Shown one piece after another: positions 11,513-34,779 of a stretch of 64,000 nt of DNA (positions are counted from its first letter, which is position 1; each line of letters opens with the position of its first letter). The position numbers and the translations under genes are program-made. Where the stretch lies: contig CAXASK010002156.1 in assembly GCA_963971535.1 (NCBI GenBank), forward strand, positions 62,001 to 126,000, read 5' to 3'. The notes below the pieces were generated by a model. The model worked only from the letters and a program-made list of their open reading frames with translations. It did not search any database and was not told the origin of the DNA. The stretch comes from Notolepis coatsorum (taxonomy: Eukaryota; Chordata; Actinopteri; Aulopiformes; Paralepididae).

Positions 11513-13363
11513 GTACAATTGCTGCATTGCTCCCCAACAACAAGCAGAGATATGAACGAGTCAAGGCCTCACTGCTGTGACCAGTGTGGAAAGAGCTTCA
11601 TCAAAAAGGCCCCTTTTCTAAAACACCAGCGCATTCATACAGGAGAGAAGCCATATAACTGTGACCAGTGTGAGAAGAGCTTCAGTAACTCTGGAGACCT
11701 AAAGAAACTCCAGCGCATGCATACAGGAGAGAAGCCTGAGAAGCCTTACCACTGTGACCAGTGTGAGAAGAGCTTCAGTTACTCTGGAAACCTAAAGAAA
11801 CACCAGCGCATTCATACAGGAGAGAAGCCTTACCACTGTGACCAGTGTGAGAAGAGCTTCAGTGAATCTGGACACTTAAAGACACACCAGCGCATTCATA
11901 CAGGAGAGAAGCCCTATAACTGTGACCAGTGTGAGAAGAGCTTCAGTGAATCTGGAAACCTAAAGAGACACCAGCTCACTCATACAGGAGAGAAGCCTTA
12001 CCACTGTGACCAGTGTGAGAAGAGCTTCCGTACCTCTGGACACTTAAAGACACACCAGCGCATTCATACAGGAGAGAAGCCCTATAACTGTGACCAGTGT
12101 GAGAAGAGCTTCAGTGAATCTGGAAGCTTAAAGAAACACCAGCGGATGCATACAGGAGAGAAGCCTTACCACTGTGACCAGTGTGAGAAGAGCTTCAGTA
12201 ACTTTGGAGACCTAAAGAAACACCAGCGCATTCATACAGGAGAGAAGCCCTATAACTGTAACCAGTGTGAGAAGAGCTTCAGTGAATCTGGAAGCTTAAA
12301 GAGACACCAGCGCATTCATACAGGAGAGAAGCCTTACCACTGTGACCAGTGTGAGAAGAGCTTCATTGCCTCTGGAGAATTAAAGATTCACCAGCGCATT
12401 CATACAGGAGAGAAGCCCTATAACTGTGACCATTGTGAGAAGAGCTTCAGTCAGTCTGGCAGCCTAAAGAGTCACCAGCACATTCATACAGGAGAGAAGC
12501 AGGGCATGCATACAGGAGAGAAGCCTTACCACTGTGACCAGTGTGAGAAGAGCTTCAGTACCTCTGGAAACTTAAAGACACACCAGCACATTCATACAGG
12601 AGAGAAGCCCTATAACTGTGACCAGTGTGAGAAGAGCTTCAGTAACTTTGGAGACCTAAAGAAACACCAGCGCATTCATACAGGAGAGACGCCTTACCAC
12701 TGTGACCAGTGTGAGAAGAGCTTCAGTGAATCAGGAAACCTAAAGAAACACCAGCGCATTCATACAGGAGAGAAGCCTTACCACTGTGACCAGTGTGAGA
12801 AGAGCTTCAGTACCTCTGGAAACTTAAAGACACACCAGCACATTCATACAGGAGAGAAGCCCTATAACTGTGACCAGTGTGAGAAGAGCTTCAGTAACTT
12901 TGGAGACCTAAAGAAACACCAGCGCCTTCTTACAGGAGAGACGCCTTACCACTGTGACCAGTGTGAGAAGAGCTTCAGTGAATCTGGAAGCTTAAAGAAA
13001 CACCAGCGTATTCATACAGGAGAGAAGCCTTACCACTGTGACCAGTGTGAGAAAAGCTTCATTGCCTCTGGAGAATTAAAGATTCACCAGCGCATTCATA
13101 CAGGAGAGAAGCCTTACCACTGTGACCAGTGTGAGAAGAGCTTCAGTGAATCTGGAAGCTTAAAGAAACACCAGCGGATGCATACAGGAGAGAGGCCTTA
13201 CCACTGTGACCAGTGTGAGAAGAGCTTCAGTGAATCTGGAAACCTAAAGAAACACCAGCGCATTCATACAGGAGAGAAGCCTTACCACTGTGACCAGTGT
13301 GAGAAGAGCTTCAGTACCTCTGGAAACTTAAAGACACACCAGCGCAGCATTCATACAGAATAG
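11513..13363 (+). CDS. C2H2 zinc-finger protein exon, 21 fingers
   Basis: Probable nuclear DNA-binding protein, last exon. An acceptor TCTCTTCTCCAG ends at 11512, and the frame runs through it in phase 0, so the open frame upstream is intronic. The first ATG after the acceptor is at 11552; the true start may be in an upstream exon I cannot place. Twenty-one fingers follow, mostly CDQCEKSF-x5-LKKHQRIH joined by TGEKPY linkers. Odd features: finger 2 has Leu for the first zinc His (KKLQRMH) and a doubled linker (TGEKPEKPY); finger 11 has a linker insertion (TGEKQGMHTGEKPY); finger 16 has Leu for the second His (QRLL); finger 21 has His-x4-His spacing. Fingers 12-14 and 15-17 are a 252-bp tandem duplication. 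No KRAB, SCAN, BTB or ZAD domain is in this exon. TAG stop at 13361. Whether it is expressed is unknown. Confidence 0.85.
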   Translation, partial: VQLLHCSPTTSRDMNESRPHCCDQCGKSFIKKAPFLKHQRIHTGEKPYNCDQCEKSFSNSGDLKKLQRMHTGEKPEKPYHCDQCEKSFSYSGNLKKHQRIHTGEKPYHCDQCEKSFSESGHLKTHQRIHTGEKPYNCDQCEKSFSESGNLKRHQLTHTGEKPYHCDQCEKSFRTSGHLKTHQRIHTGEKPYNCDQCEKSFSESGSLKKHQRMHTGEKPYHCDQCEKSFSNFGDLKKHQRIHTGEKPYNCNQCEKSFSESGSLKRHQRIHTGEKPYHCDQCEKSFIASGELKIHQRIHTGEKPYNCDHCEKSFSQSGSLKSHQHIHTGEKQGMHTGEKPYHCDQCEKSFSTSGNLKTHQHIHTGEKPYNCDQCEKSFSNFGDLKKHQRIHTGETPYHCDQCEKSFSESGNLKKHQRIHTGEKPYHCDQCEKSFSTSGNLKTHQHIHTGEKPYNCDQCEKSFSNFGDLKKHQRLLTGETPYHCDQCEKSFSESGSLKKHQRIHTGEKPYHCDQCEKSFIASGELKIHQRIHTGEKPYHCDQCEKSFSESGSLKKHQRMHTGERPYHCDQCEKSFSESGNLKKHQRIHTGEKPYHCDQCEKSFSTSGNLKTHQRSIHTE

Positions 13364-13445
13364 CCTTACCACTCTGACCAGTTTGAGAAGAGCTTCAGTC
13401 AAACTGGAGACTTAAAGAGACACCAGTGCATTCATACAGGAGAGA
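13364..13445 (+). pseudogene. Decayed zinc finger beyond the stop
   Basis: Directly after the stop the same frame reads PYHSDQFEKSFSQTGDLKRH then QCIHTGE. This is a further finger whose two zinc cysteines have become Ser and Phe. The preceding linker, normally TGEKPY, has been altered so that it now contains the TAG. The array was once at least 22 fingers long. Confidence 0.85.
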
Positions 13446-15519
13446 TATACCATTATATCCCAGTATATTCATTCAGGTTTTCAAACCCTAAAATTGTGTA
13501 GAAATCTGCCTAGAAACTCAACATACTTGACAACACATTCATCCTGGACAGCAATCCAACTAATGTGATCTGCATCAGAAGAACTTCTGACACTCATCTT
13601 CAAACACCAGTTTTGTGGTTTTAATAGGGCCTTGCTCTCTATTCCTCTCTTCCAACAATAGTCGTCTCTCTTTCAACATGGCTGCCTGTAACCAGACACA
13701 CATAGGGCCCAAGGGGTGCTTGAGCATCTGCCCTTTTCCCTCAGAGTCAGAAAATGCCCCTTTCTGCCTGGTGGTAATTGTATTGTATTTTTAGTTTATT
13801 TTCTATTGCAATTCTATCAAATGTGCTAAATATAGATGTAACAATGTATTTTTAAGTTTTGAAAGATTGCGTCCCTCCCAACTATTCTTTGACATCTGTA
13901 AGCTTTTCAACAGGACACACTAGGAAATACTGCATGTGGTTTAGGAGGGGTGGCTCCTAGGTAGAGCAGAGCAGGACGCAGAAAGAGACAATATCTCCTC
14001 CTGTGTATGAAGATCATCATTTAAATATTTATTTTAAATATTTCTTGTTATACCTGACATCGCTGCAGATGAGGGCAATCTGAACTTTTTTCTAGTTAAA
14101 ATAAAGGTGAAAATGAATTAGGATCAATGGTATTCAATACAGTGCAAAAACAGGATTTTACACAGTGAAAGTGTATATAAATAGTTTACAATCAATCCAA
14201 AACGTTTGTATTACTCATGAACTGTTAATTTGTGTTTGTATGACAAGCGTTTCTCATCCTCAGTCAGACATCTGAGCAAACTGGTCAGCATATTATCTTG
14301 ACTTGATATTTGAAAAATCTCCTGTTCCAAAGCATTATTGAGCAAAAGCTGAACTATTTCACAAATGATGACCACTCATTAATAGTTTCATACAGGCTAA
14401 AACACTGAGAACCACACATTTAATATAAATGTACGACTTTGATGCAGTTTCGTTCTCAACTCTGCGTTCGCACATACAGCCCCTCCGATTAATGTGCAGA
14501 TTGTCAGGAGTCCAGTGCAGGTGTGAACACGGCTTCAGTGTGTTTTGGGGGGACAGGCATGCTGTTGATTATTTTCCCAATTTGCTGTGATGACGTTGAT
14601 ATAAATATTTATTTAAACGTGGTATTCAATACTGAGTGAAATAAGCAAAAAAAATCAAGATTTTACATCCAGCCTGTGTAAAGGGGTCTTTAGTATGTTT
14701 ACATTGTGTAGCTAAGGGGCTACACGACCCTGACTGTATTTAAAGGATAGGTTCGACCACTACTAAATATTAATTAGCCAGACATTAAATGTACACAAAA
14801 TGGCGGACACTCTTAACTGCGAGGGGACACTGATACCAAGTTCCAATAATCACTTTAATATTAAAGTCAAACATACATATTATATATCACAGATCTCCGG
14901 TTACTACTATAATGTCAATGCAACAATGTCCGAGGTAAGTATAGTTCCTAAACTACTGGTACCCGACCGTTGGAGCTCTGAATGGAGTGAGACGGAGTGA
15001 ACAGCACGGGGGAAGCAAGAGAAGGATGGAGACTATATTCTCTGGAGTTCCTACTCCAGAGAGCTGCAGACCAACGTGGGATAATCCTGTCGTCGCTGAA
15101 TAGGGGGTCTCGTACGCACCTGGTTCCTGTATTCCAAACGCCCGATGGCAGATTAATAGCTAATATTCCAAACGCCCGATGGCATGGTCACTAGCTAGTT
15201 AGCCCTTTTATGCTAAGGCTAACCTGCATAACGTTTGCTCTCACACACTATGCCCGGGCATGTCCTAAAAACCCTGCGCATGCGCTCACGCTGTCTACAG
15301 GTGCATGCGCGTGCGCCTACGGCGTTAAGAATGGAACATATGCAAAGAGGCGAATGATAAAATACTGTTAGGTAAATAGACGACGTGAAAATATATATCT
15401 TATAAACAATATAAGGTATACAAAATAATAAACGTGGACTTTATGTGTTAATCTGGACCTTCAGAACACATTGCATACTGTATTTTGTCATAGCCTGCAC
15501 CCTCGTACATTATAAGACC
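13446..15519. other. 3' flank, no gene seen
   Basis: About 2 kb of AT-rich sequence, part of which may be the zinc-finger 3' UTR. No clear polyadenylation site was assigned. A 20-bp phrase beginning CCAAACGCCCGATGGCA occurs at 15137 and again at 15168. 15255-15330 is richer in CG with GCGCATGCGC-type palindromes. No exon was recognised. Confidence 0.45.
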
Positions 15520-15875
15520 AGTGGGCCTCATGCATGAAGCGATATAAGAACAGATTTCGTTCTTAACTAGCATTTCCTCTTACTTTGTTCTTACCTGGGA
15601 TTCAGCAACATTTTCTTATTGTTGCTTTTTTCTCAGGCAAGAACAAATTATAAGAGTGGTCGAGAGCACTGTTACCGAAATAAGAAATTCTTACCCCAAA
15701 AAAATGAAAAAAAAAAAAAAAAGCCTACCATTGGTTAATTGCCCCCAAATACGACTTTAAAAAATACAGAACTTTTCAATAATAATAATTATGATGAATA
15801 TAACTTATTGCGTGTGTTCTGTCTGAAATGGATTATATATTGCTGTTAGAACAGTTATGCTCTGGCCGCCCAGGC

Positions 15876-16100
15876 CATTGATTGATTGAAGATTTTATTA
15901 ACAGATTGCAGAATGGGTACAATACAGTACAGCTCAATACACACAATTGTTAAGGGGAGGCAGACCAGAGAAAGACTTTCGTCTTGTTTACATCAGGGTC
16001 CCCCATTTTCAATTCATAATGACATTTGACATACACAACATACAGATATTACAGATATATATCATGACATTTATGACATGACATACATATATGCAGTACT
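15876..16100 (-). repeat. LINE 3' tail, (TCAA)n type
   Basis: Minus-strand copy of a recurrent 3' end: CTGATGTAAACAAGACGAAA, GTACCCATTCTGCAATCTGT, then AATAAAATCTTCAATCAATC. Related copies are at 34780-34915, 38815-38877, 40535-40650, 43795-43880 and 45255-45560. The tail with AATAAA and short tandem tetramers fits a LINE 3' terminus; 5'-truncated. Confidence 0.7.
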
Positions 16101-16136
16101 GTATACATATAATGCATATTTAGAGGTCGTCTATAT

Positions 16137-16320
16137 CAGTGGTTCCCAAACTTGTTTTATGCGGACCACTAGATTGTTATCAAGAACATTTGTGGACCAC
16201 CTCGTATGCAAACAGTAAAACATAAATAAACAACTGACTTAAACCCAGTAATACACGAGACTCTCTTCTTGGACCAAGTAGGTTTAGTCGATAATCCAAC
16301 ATACAGTTACCCCTACCCAT
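16137..16320. mobile_element. hAT end fragment
   Basis: Begins CAGTGGTTCCCAAACTTG, a common hAT (Charlie-like) terminus, followed by TGCGGACCACTAGATTG. No opposite terminus or 8-bp duplication was found, so it is a truncated end. Confidence 0.5.
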
Positions 16321-16358
16321 CCCCCCAGAACGGCTTTATGAATGTGGCGGTGGCTTTT

Positions 16359-16715
16359 ATGACGAACCAGAGGTTATCATAAAGGGAGTCAACACACGTG
16401 ATAACAATTTAACAAAAGATAATTTATTTAATCCATCGAAACAAATAATAATCGAATTAAACAACAAATGTGCATAACAGAATGGACAGAGGATGCCAAG
16501 TTGGTTTACTTGGTGGCTGATACAACCTGTCCTGTTTGATGGGAAACGCAGATGGGATAAGCAGACAGAAGGGTTAGACAAGGGAAACATATACTGTGTG
16601 TGCAGGCAGCTCTGCACTGCACAGGTGATTCGAATTGGGGTAACGACCTACCCACTCCACCCTGCTCTTTGAGTCAGAAGACTCCCCATTTGCAGGTAGA
16701 GTGGGGGTCATCACA
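16359..16715 (-). repeat. 3' LTR of the non-autonomous element
   Basis: About 357 bp, direct-repeat partner of 29955-30334, bordered on the inner side by the polypurine tract. Confidence 0.85.
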
Positions 16716-17341
16716 CCCTCCCCCTAAAGATAAGGGTTCTACCCTATTAACAAATCACACTTTTATTTACAAACAAGCTAACCCAAATCCCAAATGTAAC
16801 AATAATACTTTTTCCCAAATTCAAATAAAAATAAACATAGTTTTACCCTTCACCCATCCTGCCTCCGCTCTCAGCAACATAGGGCCATAGGAAGCAGTCT
16901 AAGAGAGCAGGAGACAGTAGGGAGTGGGGAACAGACAAACCAGGCAAAACAAGAGTTGCACACCAGAGGAGCACACACACAAATTCCAAAGCACAAAAGT
17001 CAACAATCAAACACATGGGCCAAAAAGGGATATTTGTATCTACAAAGCTAAATGGTGTTTCCCCACATAGGGAATTCTACATTATCCACTTGGTTTAAGA
17101 GTTTAGGCCTCTTTGTGTATTTATCAAAATTAGCCCTAGGCTTATAATACAACAGTCAAAGAATTAAGGCCACCATGTAAAGGGATAATACACCACACAA
17201 TGAAACACCATCAAATCAAACAAAGCAACACAAATCATCTCCAACAGCCCTGCTGACCGGTCACCCTTTCCCCTCACCCTCCTGCCTCCGCTCTCTGCAA
17301 CATAGGATCCTAAGAAGCAAATTAAGAGAACAAGAGACAAG
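16716..17341 (-). other. LTR element interior with internal duplication
   Basis: Non-coding interior between the 3' LTR and the Rex1-type LINE. A phrase containing CCTGCCTCCGCTCTC and CAACATAGG occurs at about 16852-16915 and again at 17272-17340, an imperfect direct duplication. Confidence 0.55.
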
Positions 17342-17580
17342 TTCAAGTTTCTTTAATAGTTGTCATACAGAAGTACAGAATACTTTTATACAAAATGCTT
17401 CTTTCTGTTACGCTCCAGAGACTGTGCTAGACAAAAGATAAGTATGAAATAAAATAAAATAGTATAGCATGTAAAAATAGATTGTTGTTCAGTTGCTGTT
17501 CAGTATGTACAATGTTCGATGCACAATAGAGTAACTGAGTTTCCATACAATATACAATATACTATGCAATATACTAATAT

Positions 17581-18309
17581 TAGAGCTGGGCCGTTAACGT
17601 GCTGCGTTAACGCTATACTAGTATTGCGCGATAATATAATTAACGCATTAATCTAAAAATAAAAAAAAAGTTTTTTCTTTTTTCTTTTTTTACATTTTTT
17701 TTTTTTACCTTTATTTACCCAGGGTAGGTTCGCTGAGCACAGATGCTCTTTTTCAGGAACGCCCTGCTTCACATTCACACAGTTCCATTCACACCTGGGA
17801 GCTGCCCAGTACAACCACAGTTGACACCATTGGCCACTGAGCAACTCCACTGGAGCAGTTGATTCAAGCCATGTCACATAGTTCAAGTTTGAAATGATTC
17901 TTTCTGTTTTGCTCCTGAGAGTGTGCTAGATACTGTACTCTACTGGTAATATTATTTATTTGTGTTAACTTCTGAATAAAACAACTTATTAAACACAAGT
18001 ACATCTTATTGAACATTATTTTGATATTTCATTACCAATTATCATAGCAAAACAGCTTTTTCAAACAGTCTGTAATGCATTTTGGAAACGGGAGATGGGC
18101 TCATGGTGTAATGGGCCACCTGGCCTGAGAAACATAAGGAGGAAAGAAAAAGTAAGGACTTACTTCTGGTCATTATTTGGGTAGAACACACATATTTTGA
18201 ATGCCTTCAGCAGGTTTTTTTTTTTTTTTTTGCCATTTTAATCTAGATTAATCTAGATTAAATCCAGGATTGCAGATAGATTAAAATGTTTTATCTATGC
18301 CCACCTCTA
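17581..18309. mobile_element. Non-autonomous hAT, TSD ACTAATAT
   Basis: A 729-bp element with ends TAGAGCTGGGC and GCCCACCTCTA, flanked by the exact 8-bp duplication ACTAATAT (17573-17580 and 18310-18317). The right sub-terminus has tandem TTAATCTAGA. It contains a SINE-like insert at about 17706-17880 and no transposase. Confidence 0.92.
17706..17880. repeat. SINE-like repeat inside the hAT
   Basis: Begins CTTTATTTACCCAGGGTAGG and contains CACCTGGGAGCTGCCCAGTA. The first phrase recurs at 5428-5442. It resembles a fish short interspersed repeat; no pol III boxes were confirmed. Confidence 0.45.
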
Positions 18310-18772
18310 ACTAATATACAATACTATATAGTGCAAAGCAGAAATGGGATGAGGTACAATTTACAGTAAGGTGTACTGAGGTATGGGTTGTAGTGCAAAT
18401 CCTTTACCAATAAATATAAAGTGTGTTTAGGTGTTTTTTTTTTTTTTTTTTTTTTTTTTTATTATTGCAAAACAGAAATTATTAAAAGTCAGTACTCAAC
18501 ACACAATGCATAATGAAACTAACAGTCAAGGTGGCTAAAATTACATGCAAGTACAGAAACGGAAGACAAAAAAAAGTATAATAATATTTTACCGTATACA
18601 GTGTATATCCAACGAAATTAACAATTATACAAATGCCTTATACAGGATATACCCCTAATACCTATTTTCTAAAACCCTACACACATATGCTCCAGCTCGA
18701 ACCCCCCCCCCCTCCCGGACCCCTCCTTGGATAGTACCCCTATTATTCCTCACTCCTAACCAGACACTACCA

Positions 18773-21700
18773 TTATAAGCTAGCTTTTATTCTCTCCACC
18801 ACTTCTAACCACATTGACATTTTGGATTCGTTGAGACCCAGAATTCTTGCTGTAGATATTTCTTGATAAATCACATCGAGATATGTAAGAGACCAAACTT
18901 TCCGGCACATTTTTTCCGGTTGAAACCAGCGTGATGCGATCAGTTTTTTAGCTACTGTGATACCCGATAAAACCAATCTCTTTAGCTGTGGATTTACTGC
19001 AAACTCAAAAACATCATTCAAAAGCAATACAGAGGGGTGTACTGGTATATTCCAAGATACGAGTTTTGATAATTGATGGGTCACATCTTTCCAGAATGCC
19101 TTAACTGGTGGGCAGTCCCAATACATGTGCATAAATGTCCCTTCGTCTCCATTTGTACATTGGGAGCATTTTGAGTCTTGTTTCAGGCCCATTCTGTTCA
19201 GTCTTATAGGAGTCAAGTATGTCCTGTGAATATAGTTAAGATTGATTTGTTGATGGTCCGGGTTCCTTGATGTAAGACGGACATTTGCCCATGCTTCTTG
19301 CCAATCAAAGTCACTTTCCAGGTCTGGTATATCCCTCCTCCAGACAGTGTCTAGTTGGAGGGTTTCATACGAGGACGTTAGTAATTGATAATAAAAACCT
19401 GATACAAAACCTCTCAATGTTTCTCTTTCATAGAAGAATTTGTGGTATCTGTGGTGTTCAACTGGTATGTCTAATGGAACACTGTGAGACCTCAAACATA
19501 GGCGTAACTGTATGTAAAAAAGCCATGTGGACTCGGTGAGGTTAAACTTTGTGCATATTTCTCCATAACTACAAAAGCCCTGGTTATTAAAAATATCCCC
19601 TAATGAGTGTATGCCTTGCTCTTCCCATATAGGGAATCTTATAGGACGTTTTTCCATTAAGAGTGCATTGTTATTGAATATGGGAGTGTGATTATGCCAT
19701 TTTTGAGGGTTAGGATATTTTTTTTGTGTTTCCCGCCATGTCCGGATTGCATGGGTAATTATGGGGCCAAATTTCCGCTCACAGTGCTTGATTGGAAGTT
19801 TAGTGTGTGCTATGTCCTTCAGTCTCTGTGGGGCTACTATGTTTTCTTCCAATTCTCTCCAGGATACCAAAGCATGGGGATCAAACCATATTGTCAATGG
19901 TCTTAATGTGTAAGCCTTAAAATATTGGAAAAAATCTGGAACTGCCATGCCACCGTCTGCTTTATTTCTCTGTGCGGTGGATCTTTTTATGCGAGGTGGT
20001 TTGTTATTCCAAATAAATTTGTATGTGGAGGAGTGTAATCTTTTCCAGTAGCCCTCTGGAGGGGGTAACAGTAACATTGAGCTGATGAAGTTGATTCTTG
20101 GTAGTACATCCATCTTAACTATTGATACCCTTGCCTGTACTGAGTTTTTAAGTTTTGCCCACCTGTCCAGGTCGTCTTTGATTTTGTTCTGTATTTTTGT
20201 GTAATTGTGCTTCACCGTTTGTCTTATGGTGGGAAATATTTCCACACCCAAGCATCTAAAATGTTTTACCATGGGTATCTCACCTGGGAGGGTTGTGTCT
20301 TTATTTGCATGGGTGTTAAGTGGAAGGAAAGCCGACTTCGGCCAATTTATTTTAAATCCCGATAAATCACCAAAGTTCTCTATCAGCTTGAGTAGATGAG
20401 GCAATGTGGTGTTGGGGCTTTGCATGAACAATATTACGTTGTCCGCATATAAACAAATTTTATGTTGTGTGCCCTTGATTACGATTGGTTCTATGGATTG
20501 GGATTGTCTTATATATTGTGCTAAAGGTTCTAATGATAGATCGAATAGTCCGGGACTAAGAGGGCAACCCTGTCTGGCTGAGCGTGATACCGGAAAGATT
20601 TTGGAGATGAATGTACCTGTTGTAATCATGGCCGATGGGTCTTTGTATAATACTTTAATCATATCAATGAATCCTTTTCCTAACCCCATCCTTTCTAATA
20701 CTGCCCATAGAAACGACCATTCCAGCCTGTCAAAGGCTTTCATAGCATCCAGGGACTTCATCGCCTTAGGTATGGTGTCTTCTTTGTCTGCATCTAGTAC
20801 GTGCAGTATTCGTCTTATGTTATCATTGATCAGGCGACCTCTTATGAAGCCAGTTTGGTCCGGATGAACTAAAGACGTCATATGCTTTTGTAATCTGATG
20901 GCTAATACCTTAGAGTACAGTTTGACATCGGTTCCGAGGAGGCTTAAGGGTCTGTAACTACCGCACTCGGTGGGGTCTTTGTCTTTTTTGAGAAGGACTG
21001 AAATGAGTGCAATATTGTCGTGTTTATGGAAGCTTCCCTCCTTGACTGAGTATAAGATCATATTTAGTAATAAGGGTCCAATTATGTCCCAACAAGAAAG
21101 GTACATTTCCGATGGGATACCGTCTCTTCCAGGAGCCTTACCATTTTTCATTTCGGATATGGCCTTCTTGAGTTCCTCTAGTGTGATCGGTGCTTCTAAC
21201 TGTTTAGCGTCATCTTCCGAGAGTTTAGGGAGAATAATTTGATTAAAGGGGAACTATTTTACTATTTCTTTCACTATTTGGGCACTTTTACACAATTCCT
21301 GTGAGTCTATGGAACACCTCTGTAATATATATATTTTTTTTATTCATTGTTTTGTATTTCTAATCAAGTCCTCAAAAACAGCATTTTTCTACCTCAAGAT
21401 CTTGAGCTGCTTTGAGCCTGGGCTCCAACCACTGTGCAGCGGCGTCGTCCGCCTGAACATTAACATGCAGCAGTGACTATATGACATCACATATAGGCAC
21501 ATTTTCAAATGTGACTCAGTTCAGTGAGGGTGAATATTGTGAGAGGAGAATTGGAAGAATGCGCCAATATGAGAATTTTGAGACATAGATCATATTAATA
21601 TAAGTTCACATAGCTAGGAAACAATGCTAAACACTCAAAAAGGCCATTTATAAGATAGTTCCCCTTTAAGATATGTGTCCATTTTGTTTTGATCAAAGGT

Positions 21701-22957
21701 CGTTTCTGATTTATATAAATCGGAGTAGAATTCTTTGAATGTGTCGTTTATTATTTTGGGGTCTGTTACAAGTACTTGTTGTTTTCTAATGGCAGTTATA
21801 TCTGCAAATTTTGCATTAATTCTTAATCGCATGGCTAATAGGTGACTAGGTTTAGAACCTTGGGAGTACTGCTGTTGTCTTGTGCTGCGTATTTGCATTT
21901 CCGATTGTTGTCTGTATATGGCATTGATCTCTGTTTTTAGTACGTTAACTTGATTTTCTAGTCTAGTTGAGTTGTTGTATTTTAAAGAATTAAATAACGT
22001 TGAGTAAAGCGTTTCCAGTTCAGACAGTTTTGTGCATTGATTCTTGCGCATTATGGAGGAAAATCTATCAGTGAAATCCTTGATCATACCCTTTACCGAC
22101 ATCCATATTATTCTGGGGTCTTGCACCGCGTTTGCATTCTCCCGTAGGAATACTGTGAGAGCTTCTTTGAGTTGTGTAATGAATTCCTTGTTGTTAAGCA
22201 GCATCGAATTAAAACGCCATCTTGGGGCCCGGGAAGATAGTATACCAAATGTTGCTTTTAGGAGTAAATAACAGTGATCTGATGCATTGGGTATCATTTC
22301 CACTTCATATTTATCAAATAATCTCGGGGATGCAAAGACATAATCAATTCTGGATAATGTGTTATGTCTCGCCGATCGACAAGAGTACTTTCGGGTCGTG
22401 GGATTAAGTGAACGCCATAAATCATTTACCCCTGTAGTCTTTGACCAATCTTTTAGTGCTTTAGATGAATTTTTTTGTTCGCTGGAAAAGGCGAGGTAAG
22501 ATTTGTCCATCCTTGGATTCCAAATGGCATTAAAATCCGCACCTATTATAAATGAGTACTCGGGATGGTTTAACATTTCATCGGTTAGTGAAGTGAAGAA
22601 ACCCTCTTCGTACAAATTTGGGGCATATACCGCTGCCAACGCTATTTTCCTGTTATTGTGTACAATCCTAGCTATAGTTATACGCCCCTCCGCATCCGAC
22701 CATACCCCCTTTAATTCGATATTTAACTTACGTCTGACGACTATGGCTACACCTCGAGTTCTCGTACAAAAAGAAGAGTGACTAATATTATGGTATGTGT
22801 TATCCGCTAACGTATCTATGTCTTCCTCTAAAATGTGCGTTTCGCTTAGTAGAGCCACGTCCACATGTTCTTTTTTCATCAGTGTGAGCACGCTTTTGCG
22901 TTTGTGTTGTTTGTTTATCCTACCAGTGTTCCATATCATTATATTCAAACTAGCCAT
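18773..22957 (-). pseudogene. L1 ORF2, open but for one MITE; active-site changes
   Basis: Endonuclease plus RT protein of L1. The endonuclease part (21666-22957, start ATG at 22957) has MIWNTGRINKQHKR, LLSETHI, IIGADFNAIWNPRMDKS, SRIDYVFAS and NASDHCYLLL. The RT part (18773-21242) has NGKAPGRDGIPSEMY, RPLSLLGTDVKLYSKVLA, HPDQTGFIRGR, ARQGCPLSPGLF and LGVEIFPTI, then a Cys-rich tail CSQCTNGDEGTFMHMYWDC. The 419-bp MITE plus TTAA is 423 bp, a multiple of three, so both parts are in one frame of about 1250 codons with no other stop. But the catalytic box is YADN, not YADD, and LDAEKAFDR has become LDAMKAFDR. The RT is therefore expected to be inactive despite the open frame. Confidence 0.85.
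21247..21665. mobile_element. TTAA-flanked MITE
   Basis: A 419-bp element with ends AGGGGAACTAT and ATAGTTCCCCT between TTAA (21243-21246 and 21666-21669). Non-coding. TTAA duplication suggests a piggyBac- or Kolobok-type mobiliser. A truncated inverted copy is at 33129-33451. Confidence 0.85.
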
Positions 22958-23249
22958 AATCTATGCATGTTTTTGTGTGGTTTTTGGTAATGCTTCTGGA
23001 GTGCGAAGCTACAATAGATGTACATCCAATTATTGAGGTCCCGTTGAGAGCCGAGCTTAAAAACATATATATATACAAATAAAAATCCCCTATTTTCCCC
23101 TCACCCAGAGAGTCGTACAGTCCTGTGTTCCAAAAACACATCCTCTGCGTATGACTCTCTCCCTTAGGCCACCGGATTGCCCAAACTGAGTTTTGTAATC
23201 CTAATCTTCCTATGCTAATTGCCATAGGATCTAACACTTTCATTCTAAT

Positions 23250-24011
23250 ATAATAGAATGTCGCTTTTGGTCTTGCGCCTTCCCTTACTGTGATGAAATA
23301 TTATGAAAAATGAGAAAAAAAAAGAATAAACTTTCATCGATATATTCATTTGAACCCTCTACTAACTTATGTAGGAAACATCAGAAAAAGGAAAAGATTG
23401 TAGAGAAACATTAACACCTTAATATGAAGAACATTGGGAAAGAACAATGTAAGATAAAAGAGAGAAAGAAAAAAAAGATAAAAATAAGGAGTGAGAGATA
23501 GAATAATACTCAACGTGAAGAAGCCACTAGAACAGAATTGAGTAATTAGATAAAAGAGAAAAACAGAGCCTTTTAGAGCTACAATGTGCCAATCTCTACA
23601 TCAGTGGAGTGATTACTTAAATTGTTAGAATAACCTTGTTGTGCTCATATGTTTAGGTGTGGTTAATTTATTTTTAAAGTTTTATTAAGGCCTGATTACA
23701 CTTCAGTCAATTGATCATATGCTATGTTTATACACACCGGATGTTAATGTTAGAGTTGCAAGCCTTCGTTGTTACGGTGCATTATTTTCTAGAAGGTTGT
23801 AGAATACACTAGTATATACTAACAGACTGTTGTTATGTTCCAGAATGATCTTCCTACCCAGGGTTCATGACTAATAGTATTTTCGGGAGAGTGACCCAGA
23901 GCAGTCGAGCGATAAGCCCAGAATCTTCCAGATTGTTCTTATTGTAATGATATGTTCTTGTCTCCACGAAGACCAGAGGTCTGAAAATATAATGCATTAC
24001 GAATCGTATTA
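23250..24011. other. Probable L1 5' region; no gene seen
   Basis: AT-rich sequence upstream of L1 ORF2. A purine-rich part at 23290-23520 could be 5' UTR. No ORF1 coiled coil or RRM was recognised. It contains the third copy of GTTTAGGTG at 23651. Confidence 0.4.
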
Positions 24012-24019
24012 TACACAAT

Positions 24020-25757
24020 CAGGGCCGCCTCAGGGGGTGTGCGAGCAGTGCGGTCGCACAGGGCCTCGCGGGAAGGGGGGCCTCGCAAAAAAAAAAAAAA
24101 AAAAATTTATTTATCTTTTTTTTATTTTAATTTTTTGCTTATATATTTCACATTAGACACGTTTGTAGAATATGTCTGACTTGTTCCTGCCTCTGCGGCT
24201 CTGCAGACTGCAGTTTTCCGGTTTCTGCGGCTTTGCTGCTCTACAGATTTTAGGATAGTGTTTCCGGTCTCTTCTCCCGTCCGCCGTAATAGAAGAAGAA
24301 GAAGAAGACACACGACACGAGGTAGAGGGATGATCTAATTCAGTTATTCAGCGCTATTCAGAGGAGCCAGTGGATGTCTTTTCAAAAGCAGCATGGATCA
24401 GAAGAAATTACACCGTGGGCCAAGAAAGTCTCCTTCCAACTTTACCATTGGCGCCGCATTGATACTGCGTTATGGTGAGTCAACCTATTATTATATTCCC
24501 GCCGTGGACCTATCTCTCTCTCTCTCTCTCTGGAGCCAAACTGGTCGACTAGCTAATAGTACTACTAGTAGCTAACGGTGTGTGCCTGGTGTCAGCACCT
24601 GGCTGTATGTAGCCGCATAGCTTGCTTCTGCGTTAGCTAATGGTTAGCGATAGCCTGGTTGAGCTAACTGTTAACGTCGAAGCTAAACAGCTAACTCAAG
24701 GCTAACTGATAGCATCAAACGAACGTTCCCAGCCGAGCGCAGCCGGCAGTTAACGTCGAAGCTAAACAGCTAACTGGCTAACTGCCGGCTGCGCTCGGCT
24801 GGGAACGTTCGTTTGATGCTATCAGTTAGCCTTGAGTTAGCTGTTAACTTGTGCTACGACCATTGACATTAGCCGTGAGAATAGCAGGGGGTTCTGGCAC
24901 TCTGACTACGACATCATCTTTGACAGAAGATGTAGTCGGGCCTGCACCATGACAAGGCACTGGCAGCAGCTTATTTTTGTCCTGACAGCGAGAGGCCTTT
25001 CGTCAACGTGGAGACCTGTGTTACGGCCTTTCGCCCTGCGTTCCTTGGTGCAGGTAAGATTAATGAAAATGTCATGACATTACCCCACTCTTCCTTCCTT
25101 CCCCTCCCGAATGTTTTGTTAATAACGATGTTTTTTTCCAGGCAAAACATATGCTACTTCACAACATTTGGAGATACGACATGTGCTGTGTGTGAATGTC
25201 TTGGTCGTTTGTGTAGCTTGGGTAGCGTTGGGCCGTTGGCCAAAGCTGTGTGTGTCACAGTACCTGGCTAGCCTATTTAGCTGATGTCGGCCATTGGCTC
25301 CTTGCTGCTTTGGATTCTCTATAGACCCTCTTCTCTTTGGATTTAAGTGTTGATCTTTGTCCTTTTTGATCTCTCATACATGCTCTCTCTAACACACACA
25401 CATGCTCTCTCTCTCTCTCTCTCTAACACACATGCTCTCTCTCTCTCTCTCTCTTTCTAACACACACAGTCTGCCTATGGCGGCCTTTCTCGATGGCTAG
25501 GCTGTGCTCGCTGAGTCTGTATAGTCAAGGATCTTCAGTCACAGTGCTCAGGTATTCTGCCACTGTGTACTCTCTGTTTAGGGCCAAATAGCATTTCAAT
25601 TTCTTTCCAATGTGTCTCTCTCTCTCTCTCTCTGTACACTGTATATTGACTGTAGAACGGGAGCTCTCTCTCGCTCTCTCTTTTGCTATATGTTGACTGT
25701 ATCATGCCCCGCCTCGGGCAACGCTATTATTTAAGAATATGTTGACTGTATGGAAAA

Positions 25758-25807
<50 letters not shown>

Positions 25808-25891
25808 CTTTTATTTTTTTTAACCTTTTGGGGGGGGGGGGGGGGGGGTTAAATCTCGCACAGGGCCTCGCATTTCTCCCAGGCGGCCCTG
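24020..25891 (+). mobile_element. hAT deletion derivative, copy 1 (TSD TACACAAT)
   Basis: A 1872-bp element with ends CAGGGCCGCC and GGCGGCCCTG, flanked by the exact 8-bp duplication TACACAAT (24012-24019 and 25892-25899). A possible first transposase exon starts at 24393: MDQKKLHRGPRKSP, running to a GGTGAGTC donor near 24475. Later parts (about 24900-25060) look like a second exon ending at a GTAAGA donor. No catalytic domain remains. It contains the inverted duplication at 24686-24845 and (CT)n, (AT)n and poly-G tracts. A second copy in the opposite orientation lies at 45579-47693. Confidence 0.88.
24686..24845. repeat. Perfect 67-bp inverted duplication
   Basis: The arms 24686-24752 and 24779-24845 are exact reverse complements around a 26-bp spacer. 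The spacer repeats sequence lying just left of the first arm (24672-24696 and 24752-24776 share GTCGAAGCTAAACAGCTAAC). The copy at 46740-46850 has this sequence once and no inverted arm, so the event is specific to copy 1. Confidence 0.93.
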
Positions 25892-26112
25892 TACACAATA
25901 CGCATTGGTGTAGACGGCCTGCATATCATCTGCTACTTTTGATGAACACAGATAAAGTCATTCTAATACTGATATACACAGAGAAAGAGAGAGATGAGGT
26001 TTAGGTGTTCTAAAGTGTGGAGAGTGGGTGCTGCAGTGTGTTGTTTGTTTAAAGTGAGTGTCTGCGTGTGGATGTGTGTGTTGTGAGTGCATTTGATGGT
26101 TGTTGCATAGTG

Positions 26113-27672
26113 TTATTGTTCGTTGAGCAACCTGATGGCCTGGGGATAGAAGCTTCTTCTGAGTCTTTCTGTGCTTGCCATGAGACTCCGGTATCGCTTG
26201 CCTGACCGCAGCAGTTCAAAGAGGCAGTTGTTTGGGTGGCTGGAGTCCTTAATAAATCTCTTAGCCTTACCCCTGCACTGCTTGTTGTAAATGTGCTGGA
26301 GAGTGGGAAGCCCCCCTCCAATTGTGTGTTCGGCTGAACGTGCCACTATAGTCTGCTTCGGTCTTGTGCGGTGCTATTCCCAAACCAGGAGGTGATATTG
26401 CCAGTCAGGATGCTCTCTATTGTACATGAGTAGAAGTTCTTAAGGATCTTCTGACTGACTTGGAACTTCCTTAGGCGCCTGAGGAAGTAGAGGCGTTGTC
26501 GTGCCTTATTCACAACACTGTTAATGTGTGTGGTCCATGTCAAGTCCTCGGATATGTGGGCTCCAAGGTACTTAAAACTGTTCACTCTCTCAACCGGTGC
26601 CCCGTCGATGCTGAGGGGGCTGTAGTCCCTGACCCCCGACCTCCTAAAGTCCACAATCATCTCCTTTGTTTTGCTGACATTCAGTGAGAGGCTGTTCTCC
26701 TGGCACCATCCCGCCAGGACCTTGACCTCTTCCAGGTAGGCCCTCTCGTCGTTTGCAGAGATCAGGCCCACCACTACTGTGTCGTCAGCAAATTTGATGA
26801 TTGTGTTGTTGTTCCGCTGAGCCACACAGTCATGTGTGTACAGGGAGTAGAGGAGGGGGCTCAGAACACAGCCCTGGGGGGCCCCTATGTTGAGGGTGAT
26901 GGATGAGGAGGTTCAGTTGCCTGCTCTCACCACCTGGGGTCTGCCCGTCAGGAAGTCTAAGACCCACTGGCAGATGTCATAGTTCAAGCCCAGGTCCCTT
27001 AGCTTGGCTATGAGTTTGGAGGAGACTATGGTATTGAATGCTGAGCTGTAGTCGATGAATAGCATTCTCACATAGTTCCCCTGCCTCTTGTCCAGGTGTG
27101 ATGCTGCTGTGTGCAGCACATGGGCTATGGCGTCCTCTGTGGACCTGTTGGGGCGGTATGCAAATTGCAGGGGGTCCAGGTTGATGGGGAGGGAGGAGCC
27201 GATGTAGCCCTTTACTAGCTTCTCAAAGCACTTCATGGCTATGGAGGTGAGAGCTACAGGGCGGTAGTCGTTGAGGCAAGCAGGTTTGGATTTTTTAGGT
27301 ACAGGGATGATAGTGGACTTCTTCAGGCAGGTGGGGATGACAGCCTGTTCTAAGGACAGGTTAAATATGTCAGTGAATACCGGGCCAGTTGGTCGGCACA
27401 GACTTTTAGGATGCGGCCGGGGATGCCGTCCGGTCCTGCTGCCTTCCTGATATTCACTTTTTTAAAGGACCTCCTCACCTCATGCTCTGTTACCCTGAAC
27501 ACTGAGTCTCCGTCAGCAGACCCCCCCCCATTGCCGTGGCTTGTAGGCTGGTGTTATTCCCAGCCTCAAACCTCGCATAGAAGGTATTGAGATCATTTGC
27601 TAAGGAGATGTCACTGTTCAGTTTGAGGGAGGTGCCTTTGTAATCCGTCATCGTTTTGAGGCCCTGCCACAT
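26113..27672 (-). pseudogene. Rex1-type LINE reverse transcriptase
   Basis: Open segments at 27490-27672, 26913-27236, 26346-26825 and 26113-26346 are collinear parts of one RT. All main motifs are seen ([45 protein letters not shown]). The frame is lost at about 26900 and about 26346. A plain LINE relic, with no sign of host use. Confidence 0.8.
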
Positions 27673-28311
27673 AGCTCTGGAGTCAGCCTGTTCAAACTGA
27701 AGTTAAATTTTATTCCTGTAGCGCCGTTTTGCTTCTATTACTGTCCTCCTTACGTTGTATCTCGGCAGCTTGTGGTCATTCATGTTGCCTGCCACGAGCC
27801 CACCGTTGTATGCTATGGTGCGCGCTTTCAGAGCCTCACGGACGGATTTGTCTACCCAAGGTTTTTGATTTGGGTAAACTCATATTGTGGTAGTGGGGAT
27901 TGTTTCTTCCACCAAAGTACGAACAAAGTCCAGCACTGTCTCCGTGTAGTCATTAATGTTATCTGTGACAGAAGAGATTGGGGGAACAAACGAGACGAGA
28001 AGAACAGAGAATGTTAAAAGATGATGCACTTCAAAACAATGGAGTCAACCCTATCAGGTCACTCTACCATTTAAACATAAATGGTCAACCATGCCCAGAC
28101 GCATGTCATCAGGTGCTGGAAAGTTGCGGGCACAACAACATCATCCATCTCAGCACAATGACCATAAAGAGATTTTATCTTTTTTTCCTTCTCTTTCCAA
28201 TTATCTTTTTCTTTCTCTTTTTTCCCGTTTTCATTTTCTCCTTCCCAACCATCGCACTCTGAATAGTCTCATCATGAACAGCATTGGGACCACCAACTTT
28301 TTGACCAAACC

Positions 28312-29289
28312 TCAGGTCGTTAGGGCTAGACCCTGTGATCTCCTGGGCGACCTCTCTGGAAGCCAGTAGGAGCCATGGCAGTCCCTGCTCAGGAACGGGT
28401 ACTGGAGAAGTGGAACAGAGAGAAACATTATTGCGCTCCCCATAATTTCCCCCCCTTTAGATGGGCAAAAGTAGGTGGGCTTTAGGAGGTCCACATGTTC
28501 ATACGTTATTGCATTTTTGCCTTTGGCAATAACATTTGTCACATCCATTTTTTCAAACGGCACGGCCGTATCCAACAGCGTATCCAAAGCCGGATCAATT
28601 TCCACCTCTGTAGCCAAATCAGACTGTGACATGGACTGAAATGGGTCTGGCAGAAGTTGAACCAAACTAATATGAACAGTGTCAACATCCGCGCCCTGGG
28701 AAGCCCCCTGCGCATCACACGTTGCTGTCATTGCCTGTGTCACTGCACAGGCTGGATGCTCAATGACAACATCTGATATGTTGTCATTGTCAACATCGTC
28801 AAACATAGGACTAGGAGAGTCTTGTGAGTCTGGACTAGGAGAGTCTTGTGAGTCTGGACTAGGAGAGTCATGAGAGTCTGGACTAGGAGAGTCATGTGAG
28901 TCTGGACTAGGAGAGTCATGGCTGACTACACTTGGGAGAGGCCCCTCGGCCCACACCCGCACCTCAGCAAGATTGTTACCCAGATCGATGTCCACACCAT
29001 CAACAGGCAACCCAGCGCGCACCCATCCCTGCACATCACCACCCAAACCTGAAACGAGAGAAATGTTAGGTACAGGAACAGGGAACACAGACAACGTTGG
29101 ACGAGGAGAAAACAATAAATCTAGCACCCTATGCTGCAGATCTATTTTGGCAAGCTCAGCATTCTGCCTAATCTCCTCCAAAGCGAACTCTTGTCTGTGC
29201 TTTGCCTCTTGTAAAGCTTCTTGCAAAGCCAACTCTCGTCTGTGCTGCCGTAGCAGAAGGTCCTTCTGCCGCTCAAAACTGAGTGCCAT
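28312..29289 (-). mobile_element. Internal coding part of the non-autonomous LTR element
   Basis: A 325-residue frame. Residues about 1-60 form a charged coiled coil (RQKDLLLRQHRRELALQEAL, KHRQEFALEEIRQNAEL), like the start of a Gag in some fish LTR elements. The middle has a five-fold repeat of DSPSPDS(H/Q). Towards the end is AITYEHVDLLKPTYF, which resembles the HVxxLKPY tail that normally closes a gypsy polyprotein. No protease, RT or integrase is present, so the part list is that of a shortened element needing proteins from elsewhere. The assignments rest on short motifs. Confidence 0.55.
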
Positions 29290-29954
29290 AGTGCACTATT
29301 GGCCTAAACAAAGTGTGCCACACTCAAACAAAGTGCCATACGACACAGGCCTACAAAACAAAGTGTGCCACACGCAAACAAAGTGCCATACGGCACTGCT
29401 GGCCTACAAACAAACCAAATCTATGCTGGGAAACCTGCCATCTTTGCCCAACCGGGGAATTTATGGTTCCTAAAATACACAGACTGTCATTAAGGTATCA
29501 AACTCCAAAGCCTCAACACAAGCAATAACAAACAAAACAAAGTAACAAATCTCCACCACAAGAAATCTGCACAAACAAACTGCTACTTTCCCCAAATACC
29601 AAACAATCAAACCCCAAGAACAAAGACCAAATCACATGTGCTTACTCCCTAACACTGGCATACAAATAATTAGGCTACAAACAAATCCTAGCCAACAGGC
29701 TACAAATACTAGCTGCAAACCTACAGGCCACAGACACTAGTCCAATTAAGTAGCCTAACCACTCTCTCTAATTAGCCCTTCTATACTAAGACAGAGCCCA
29801 AACAAATTGTCCCAACAGGAACTCCAATACAAATGCCAGTCAAATTCCAAATGCTAGCCAAATTACCAAGCAAAACCACACTAGGTCAAATTACAAACAA
29901 AGTGAATTCCCAATCTCTACCAAAAGGTCCTACAAACAGCCCGAGCCCCCATAT

Positions 29955-30334
29955 ATGACGAACCAGAGGTTTGTCATAAATGGGTAGTCCAAACACACGT
30001 GATAACAATTTAACAAAAGATGATTTATTTAATCCTATCTAAACAAATAATAATCGAATTAAACAACAAATGTGCATAACAGAATGGACAGAGGATGCCA
30101 AGTTGGTTCACTTGGAGGCTGATACAACCTGTCCTGTTTGATGGGAAACGCAGATGGGAGTAGCAGATGGGAGAAGCAGACAGAAGGGTTAGACAAGGGA
30201 AACATATATACTGTGTGTGCAGGCAGCTCTCTGCACTGCACAGGTGATTCGAATTGGGGTAACGACCTACCCACTCCACCCTGCTCTTTGAGTCAGAAGA
30301 CTCCCCATTTGCAGGTAGAGTGGGGGTCGTCACA
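29955..30334 (-). repeat. 5' LTR of the non-autonomous element
   Basis: About 380 bp, the promoter-side LTR in the element's orientation. It matches 16359-16715 over its full length with scattered differences. CTTTT lies just outside. Confidence 0.85.
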
Positions 30335-30413
30335 CTTTTCTTATTGTTCTCTTAACAGACAGGTAAGCAAGAATATAAGAGAAATAATAAGAGAGTATTG
30401 TTGAATGAGGCCC

Positions 30414-30842
30414 AGTGTTTGTGAAGTGTTGGTGTTGTGCGTTATTGATTGTTTTAAGCGATCAGAGAGAGAGAGGGAGGCTTTGATGTGCCCTTTATTT
30501 TTGGTTGAGCACCAAGGTTGAGATGTGAAAACATTGGAAAAGCATATTACTGTTCCACTGGCTTTCCTGTTGATATAATTCTCAAATATCTATATTGTCA
30601 TGTTCAAAACAATGGCCGCTATGTTACAGGCAGCCATGTTGGAAGACAAAACTACACAAACATTCAGTGCAAGGCCTCTATTAAAACACACATTTTCAAA
30701 TCTTCTTATCATTATTATTTCAATTCTTACCTGCTATCAGAAGGCCTCGTTGAGTCATGGGTGTCCTACTCAATCAACCCTGCACCACCAGCGGCCAGTC
30801 TGTTGTTCTTTCATCAATTATTTCCTTTGTTGAACCAGACCA
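30414..30842. other. No gene seen
   Basis: Short unassigned spacer between the nest and the long-TIR element, with a small (GA)n tract near 30465. No exon or element end was recognised. Confidence 0.4.
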
Positions 30843-34571: not shown

Positions 34572-34779
34572 CTAAGACATAAATATAATTGAAATTAGTA
34601 TAGAATAAATAAACAACCACCCATAAGAAGCTTCACTTTAACAGCTAATCACCACCACATGCTAAAATCAAAAAGTGCAAAAACAGTGCCACTGAAGGGA
34701 CAATGTACAATGCATTGTACCAGATATAGCTATGAGCTCATTTACATCTGCAGTCCCTGTACACTAACATTAGGTGAAT

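What the first reader, a model, noticed from the sequence alone, without database searches (positions are those of the whole stretch)
15523..30413. Transposon nest with insertion order readable from target duplications
A Harbinger-like shell (AGT) contains an LTR element (CTTTT), which contains a Rex1-type LINE. That LINE contains a hAT (ACTAATAT) and an L1 (GTTTAGGTG). The L1 contains a TTAA MITE and a hAT (TACACAAT), and the last hAT contains its own inverted duplication. Each level was read from matching flanks, so the relative ages of five superfamilies can be ordered at one site. The outer shell and the L1 right limit are the weakest links.
Basis: partly seen in the sequence, partly recalled or inferred. 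Interest (0 to 1): 0.75.

Follow-up and report, generated by a model that had tools for sequence, protein, structure and literature searches.

The report
Nested fish transposons, insertion order verified
Seven mobile elements in a fish genome sit inside one another like Russian dolls, and uninterrupted copies elsewhere in the same genome confirm the order in which they jumped in; such nests are common, so this is a clean but ordinary example.

Summary
The nest is real and almost exactly as read. The window lies in a 3.42-Gb assembly, so each level could be tested against uninterrupted copies of its host. Empty sites were found for all six inner insertions: LTR in shell (4 of 4 fetched copies), Rex1-type LINE in LTR (3 of 3), hAT-1 and L1 in Rex1 (2 of 2), MITE in L1 (1 of 1 read, 9 of 9 by spacing), hAT-2 in L1 (18 of 19). 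A third GTTTAGGTG (23651) belongs to the L1 family. I add a 4-bp duplication, GACA, for Rex1.

Corrections: the inverted duplication in hAT-2 is shared by 6 of 10 nearest copies, so it predates that insertion. The order is of copies, not superfamilies: one fetched locus has Rex1 inside L1. Nearest-copy divergence does not rise steadily outward, so that proposed test is weak. "Harbinger" membership is not met on terminal-repeat length. A near-allelic contig has lost most of the nest. The kind is well known; interest is low.

The parts
15523..16353 (.). Left part of outer shell, a non-coding TIR DNA transposon (begins GGGCCTCATGCATGAAGC; 3-bp duplication AGT at 15520-15522)
   Evidence: 92-95% match of 15519-15732 to complete copies L049 and L050; duplication
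30340..30413 (.). Right part of outer shell (ends TTGTTGAATGAGGCCC; AGT at 30414-30416)
   Evidence: 30335-30413 matches 39 other listed places at 99-100%; continuous with shell interior in L049-L052
16354..16358 (.). CTTTT target duplication of LTR element, left copy (right copy 30335-30339)
   Evidence: single CTTTT in 4 of 4 other shell copies
16359..16715 (-). LTR at the 3' end of the LTR element; polypurine-like tract adjoins at 16716 on the minus strand
16716..17339 (-). LTR element interior, left piece; GACA 17336-17339 is the Rex1 target duplication
   Evidence: continuous with 27967 onward in L024, L025, L026
17340..27966 (-). Rex1-type LINE, 5'-truncated, with everything nested in it; own sequence is 17340-17572, 18310-18424 and 26008-27966 plus single copies of the two duplications
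   Evidence: 3' end and 5' limit; reverse transcriptase by Pfam
17581..18309 (.). hAT-1, 729 bp, ends TAGAGCTGGGC.../...GCCCACCTCTA, 8-bp duplication ACTAATAT
   Evidence: empty site in two Rex1 copies
18434..25998 (-). L1 element (with MITE and hAT-2 inside), T-run at 18434-18460, 5'-truncated at 25998, duplication GTTTAGGTG at 18425-18433 and 25999-26007
18773..21242 (-). L1 ORF2, reverse transcriptase part, open
   Evidence: Pfam RVT_1; 61% to P0001; human L1 ORF2p E 1.7e-91
21243..21669 (.). TTAA MITE (21247-21665) with its TTAA duplication
   Evidence: ORF2 residues run 432 to 433 across it in P0001; absent in other L1 copies
21670..22957 (-). L1 ORF2, endonuclease part, open
   Evidence: Pfam Exo_endo_phos
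22958..24011 (-). L1 spacer between ORF1 and ORF2 (holds the coincidental GTTTAGGTG at 23651-23659)
24020..25891 (.). hAT-2, ends CAGGGCCGCC.../...GGCGGCCCTG, 8-bp duplication TACACAAT (24012-24019, 25892-25899)
   Evidence: empty site in other L1 copies
24686..24845 (.). Inverted duplication inside hAT-2: 67-nt perfectly complementary arms, 26-nt loop
   Evidence: carried by 6 of 10 nearest copies
25892..25998 (-). L1 spacer resumes and ends at the 5' truncation
26008..27966 (-). Rex1-type reverse transcriptase region, 3 in-frame stops and 3 frame changes
27967..29954 (-). LTR element interior, right piece, with an open frame of 327 codons (28312-29295) and no recognised domain
29955..30334 (-). 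LTR at the 5' end of the LTR element
   Evidence: K2P 0.023 to the other LTR

Best explanation
A seven-copy transposon nest built by successive independent insertions. A ~1.5-kb non-coding TIR transposon (shell) was hit by a non-autonomous-looking LTR element. A 5'-truncated Rex1-type LINE entered the LTR element by target-primed reverse transcription. hAT-1 and an L1 then landed separately in the Rex1 3' untranslated region, and a TTAA MITE and hAT-2 landed in that L1. Each insertion duplicated its target and interrupted a copy already in place, so host-before-guest order is shown for each pair. The order of hAT-1 against L1, and of MITE against hAT-2, is not fixed by nesting. Mechanisms of integration are inferred from family knowledge. 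No host function is implied.
For: Empty sites in paralogs for all six inner insertions. Exact duplications. L1 ORF2 pieces abut across the MITE in P0001, and in 29 of 29 homologs tested lie in order with at most 9 residues between them. Decay fits: nested Rex1 has 3 stops and 3 frame changes, while L1 ORF2 has none. LTR pair K2P 0.023, while 39 of 39 other listed L1 matches over 344 bp are 99-100%.
Against: Nearest-copy identity is not monotonic: shell right end 99-100%, LTR 88-94%, Rex1 97-98%, hAT-1 95-96%, L1 99-100%, hAT-2 99%. One complete shell copy, L049, has unequal 3-bp flanks (AAT/ATT). The Rex1 duplication is only 4 bp. The LTR duplication needs an extra A before TG. No individual or species with the site empty at each stage was available; paralogs stand in for it. 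MITE copies could not be searched.
Confidence: 0.95

Rival explanations
1. L1 ends at 23650 (second GTTTAGGTG), so that hAT-2 and 23661-25998 lie in Rex1 or in a further insertion rather than in L1.
For: GTTTAGGTG occurs three times, and the middle one shares 11 nt (TGTTTAGGTGT) with the left one.
Against: Rex1 paralogs lack 23661-25998. In 17 of 19 other L1 loci the L1 runs through 23651, across the hAT-2 site and past 25998. GTTTAGGTG at 23651 is in 19 of 19.
Confidence: 0.01
2. The outer shell is not one element but two truncated relatives whose AGT flanks match by chance.
For: Before the genome search, 30336-30402 aligned directly with 15610-15673. 83 inverted 12-mer pairs with matching 3-mers occur in the window by the loose criterion, so AGT plus 12 nt alone is weak.
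Against: Two other copies (L049, L050) have both ends 1.4-1.5 kb apart, match the window's left end at 92-95% and run unbroken through the LTR site; 4 of 4 copies are unbroken at that site. Shell interior also matches the left flank of the LTR on C21.
Confidence: 0.03
3. The inverted duplication in hAT-2 is a later, private rearrangement of this copy.
For: The arms are 100% complementary. Two more distant copies lack it.
Against: 6 of the 10 nearest copies carry the duplicated structure, 4 of 10 do not.
Confidence: 0.03

Closest known systems
Nested transposon clusters used for interruption analysis in mammals (PMC2517846; passages seen)
   Same: Older elements interrupted by younger ones; nesting gives relative age.
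   Different: Those studies pool thousands of clusters to order families; this is one site and orders copies only.
Medaka Izanagi transposon interrupted by Rex1 in the dmrt1bY promoter (PMC5789577; passages seen)
   Same: A fish DNA transposon interrupted by a Rex1 LINE.
   Different: There a regulatory role was shown; here there is no evidence of host function, and the nest is deeper.
Human LINE-1
   Same: ORF2 endonuclease-reverse transcriptase (E 1.7e-91 to solved human ORF2p) and, in relatives, an ORF1 related to human ORF1p (E 1.1e-7).
   Different: A spacer of about 1.16 kb between ORF1 and ORF2; that the human spacer is very short is recalled.
Rex1 LINEs of teleosts (PMC6274825; passages seen)
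   Same: 5'-truncated fish LINE; reverse transcriptase with many fish relatives.

Membership tests
L1 (LINE-1) | ORF2 with endonuclease and L1-type reverse transcriptase | tested here: met
   Pfam Exo_endo_phos and RVT_1; human L1 ORF2p best in solved structures
L1 (LINE-1) | ORF1 upstream of ORF2 | tested here: met
   In relatives: an open frame of 225-396 codons in 8 of 8 loci looked at, one tested and related to human ORF1p. The nest copy is truncated and lacks it.
L1 (LINE-1) | A-rich 3' end and target duplication | tested here: met
   27-nt T-run on + strand and 9-bp duplication
Rex1 | Reverse transcriptase of the Rex1 group | tested here: inconclusive
   83% to unnamed fish-like P0121; no reference named Rex1 was on hand
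hAT | 8-bp target duplication and short TIRs | tested here: met
   Both elements, with empty sites
hAT | Transposase of hAT type | not tested
   The copies look non-autonomous; no autonomous partner was sought
PIF/Harbinger (outer shell) | 3-bp target duplication | tested here: inconclusive
   AGT/AGT in the window and ACT/ACT in L050, but AAT/ATT in L049. 3 bp is the rule given in PMC9179366 (passage)
PIF/Harbinger (outer shell) | TIRs of 25-50 bp (PMC9179366, passage) | tested here: not met
   Ends agree over the first 12 positions (11 of 12) and then diverge
PIF/Harbinger (outer shell) | Harbinger transposase and Myb-like protein in an autonomous partner | not tested
   No autonomous partner was sought
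LTR retrotransposon | Two LTRs, polypurine tract, primer site, 5-bp duplication | tested here: met
   LTR pair, CTTTT; tract and primer-like site read by eye
LTR retrotransposon | Clade-defining pol or gag domains | tested here: inconclusive
   The 327-codon open frame has no Pfam hit and no homolog at E <= 0.001
TTAA elements (piggyBac or Kolobok) | TTAA duplication | tested here: met
   single TTAA in an L1 paralog
TTAA elements (piggyBac or Kolobok) | Superfamily-specific transposase or terminal bases | tested here: inconclusive
   Ends AGGGGAACTAT; which superfamily these point to is recalled only

The most novel reading that the evidence does not exclude
The nested L1 begins 5 nt after the end of the family's ORF1 and contains the whole ~1.16-kb spacer plus ORF2. 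If many copies of this L1 family begin there, the long spacer may carry its own promoter, so that ORF2 is made from a separate RNA that is itself a template for insertion.
Probability: 0.05. Interest if true: 0.5.

Novelty: new member of a known kind. Interest (0 to 1): 0.2.

Why it matters
It is a fully checked example that a nest several elements deep can be read correctly from raw sequence. It also shows two traps: a structural level inside an element (the inverted duplication) can be older than the element's insertion, and nesting orders copies, not families. The unbroken host copies in the same assembly give an empty-site test that needs no second species.

Tried and rejected
Rejected: L1 limit at 23650; shell as two unrelated fragments, suggested by a direct similarity and dropped; a private origin of the inverted duplication; reading Rfam microRNA matches in 24680-24850 as genes (below gathering scores, both strands, explained by the hairpin); an extra nest level inside hAT-1 from its Rex1-tail-like piece (whole 729-bp unit recurs).

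Led nowhere: scans of viral contigs for the L1 and Rex1 proteins (pattern matches but no relative); homologs of the LTR-element open frame; Pfam for the L1 ORF1 (nothing above cut-off). The near-allelic C21 region could not serve as an empty-site allele because it has lost 21226-22189 and 22468-30778.

Literature: five searches of the paper library; passages seen of PMC2517846, PMC6274825, PMC9179366 and PMC5789577; PMC6911290 seen only in the search listing. None of these searches looked for this particular nest.

Full report
Setting. The window is G000:C1749:62001-126000 of an assembly of 3,421,551,600 bases in 4,787 contigs. No call names the species; that it is a fish is inferred, since the named relatives of the L1 and Rex1 proteins are mostly fish.

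Observation. GTTTAGGTG occurs three times (18425, 23651, 25999), which made the L1 right limit and the host of hAT-2 doubtful at first.

Shell. The 79 bp right of the LTR element recur at 39 other listed places at 99-100% identity (40 scored of 1,336 candidates). Four other copies were fetched. Two (L049, L050) show both ends: GGGCCTCAT... lies 1,449 and 1,432 bases before the point that corresponds to 30335, and their left ends match the window at 92-95%. In L051 and L052 the left end was not found in the fetched stretch. In 4 of 4 the sequence runs unbroken through the LTR site with a single CTTTT. Flanking triplets are AGT/AGT in the window, ACT/ACT in L050 but AAT/ATT in L049. So the shell is one transposon. 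Its terminal repeats agree over about 12 bases only, short of the 25-50 bp given for Harbinger (PMC9179366, passage), so I do not file it there.

LTR element. Two LTRs, K2P 0.023 over 354 aligned bases with 9 indel events, of which up to two may come from my trimming of the ends. Three full-length relatives (L024, L025, L026) are unbroken where the window has Rex1: in each, 17339 is followed by 27967 with a 4-base overlap, GACA. This fixes Rex1 as 17340-27966, and the protein match ends at the same place (27966).

Rex1. A copy at C21:20000225-20002569 and another at L045+L047 are unbroken at both the hAT-1 site (8-base overlap, single ACTAATAT) and the L1 site. Neither contains 23661-25998, so that stretch is not Rex1.

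L1. In 17 of the 19 other loci fetched with 23661-24011 (40 scored of 1,521 candidates) the L1 runs on across the hAT-2 site and past 25998. The exceptions are L038, which diverges 16 bases after the site, and L045, which holds a Rex1 there. GTTTAGGTG at 23651 is in 19 of 19.

MITE. In L1 homolog P0001 the endonuclease piece ends at residue 432 and the reverse transcriptase piece starts at 433; in 29 of 29 homologs both pieces match in order with at most 9 residues between. An L1 paralog on C21 has a single TTAA there. In 9 of 9 other L1 copies whose two probes could be paired from the two lists of 40, the spacing is 1,515-2,002 against 2,418 in the window (1,995 expected without the MITE).

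hAT-2 and its inverted duplication. The site is single in 17 of 19 other L1 loci with exact xACACAAT, and in L028 with one base changed. The arms are 67 nt and perfectly complementary. Of the 10 nearest copies examined, 6 carry the duplicated structure (four with at least 40 perfect bases, two with mismatches) and 4 lack it. So the duplication arose in an ancestor and came along with the insertion.

Ages. Decay agrees with nesting: Rex1 has 3 stops and 3 frame changes against P0121, while the C21 and L045 copies have none; L1 ORF2 has none. Best identities to other listed copies are: shell right end 99-100%; LTR 88-94%, 37 places; Rex1 97-98%, 39; hAT-1 95-96%; L1 99-100%, 39; hAT-2 99%, 39. 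These lists hold only the best-scored 40 candidates or so, and they are not monotonic with depth: hAT-1 looks older than its host by this measure. Nearest-copy identity reflects which relatives exist, not the date of insertion, so I rest the order on empty sites. L045, with Rex1 inside L1, shows that both families have copies inserted in either order.

Near-allelic contig. C21:19942343-19996294 is collinear with the window. Substitutions put it at 99.7-99.9% in flanks and L1, 99.3-99.5% in the LTR interior and hAT-1, and 98.3% in the left LTR (the last value is unexplained). It has the left LTR, the Rex1 3' end, hAT-1 and L1 to 21225, but lacks 21226-22189, and 22468-30778 is replaced by about 580 bp. 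It also has about 886 bp more of the shell interior at 16327. That it is the other haplotype is inferred; a recent duplication is not excluded.

Mechanism. The integration routes (target-primed reverse transcription for the two LINEs, integrase for the LTR element, cut-and-paste for the four DNA transposons) are inferred from element type and duplication length, not shown.

Verdict. The nest is real, the order of copies is well supported, and the kind is well known: nested clusters are routinely used for relative age (PMC2517846, passages), and fish examples with Rex1 exist (PMC5789577, passages).

Noticed in passing
8231-2 (minus strand): A second decayed LINE of the same reverse-transcriptase group lies in at least four pieces (8189-7809, 6871-6290, 4945-4457, 451-2) with other sequence between: probably another nest.
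   Followed up: no
22958-24011 and 25892-25998; loci L029-L040: This L1 family has ORF1, a spacer of about 1.16 kb and then ORF2; the nest copy is truncated 5 nt after the ORF1 stop.
   Followed up: partly
L045 plus L047 (G000:C9): A Rex1 copy inserted in an L1 at the position equivalent to 24011, within 8 bases of the hAT-2 site in the nest: chance or a favoured site.
   Followed up: partly
17890-17932 in hAT-1: hAT-1 carries a piece like a Rex1 3' end; the whole 729-bp unit recurs, so the family acquired it earlier.
   Followed up: yes
15876-16102: A LINE-tail-like repeat in the shell's left arm, with other copies at 34768, 38815, 40521, 43793 and 45265; some shell copies carry it, L049 seems not to.
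   Followed up: partly
G000:C21:19980530-19980810: C21 carries an insert of about 270 bp, largely a hairpin, at the position equivalent to 15714-15719 that the window lacks.
   Followed up: no
11566-13452: A large tandem array with a period near 84 bp.
   Followed up: no
16359-16715 against C21: The left LTR differs between the two contigs by 1.7% (K2P), several times more than the flanks at 0.3%.
   Followed up: no
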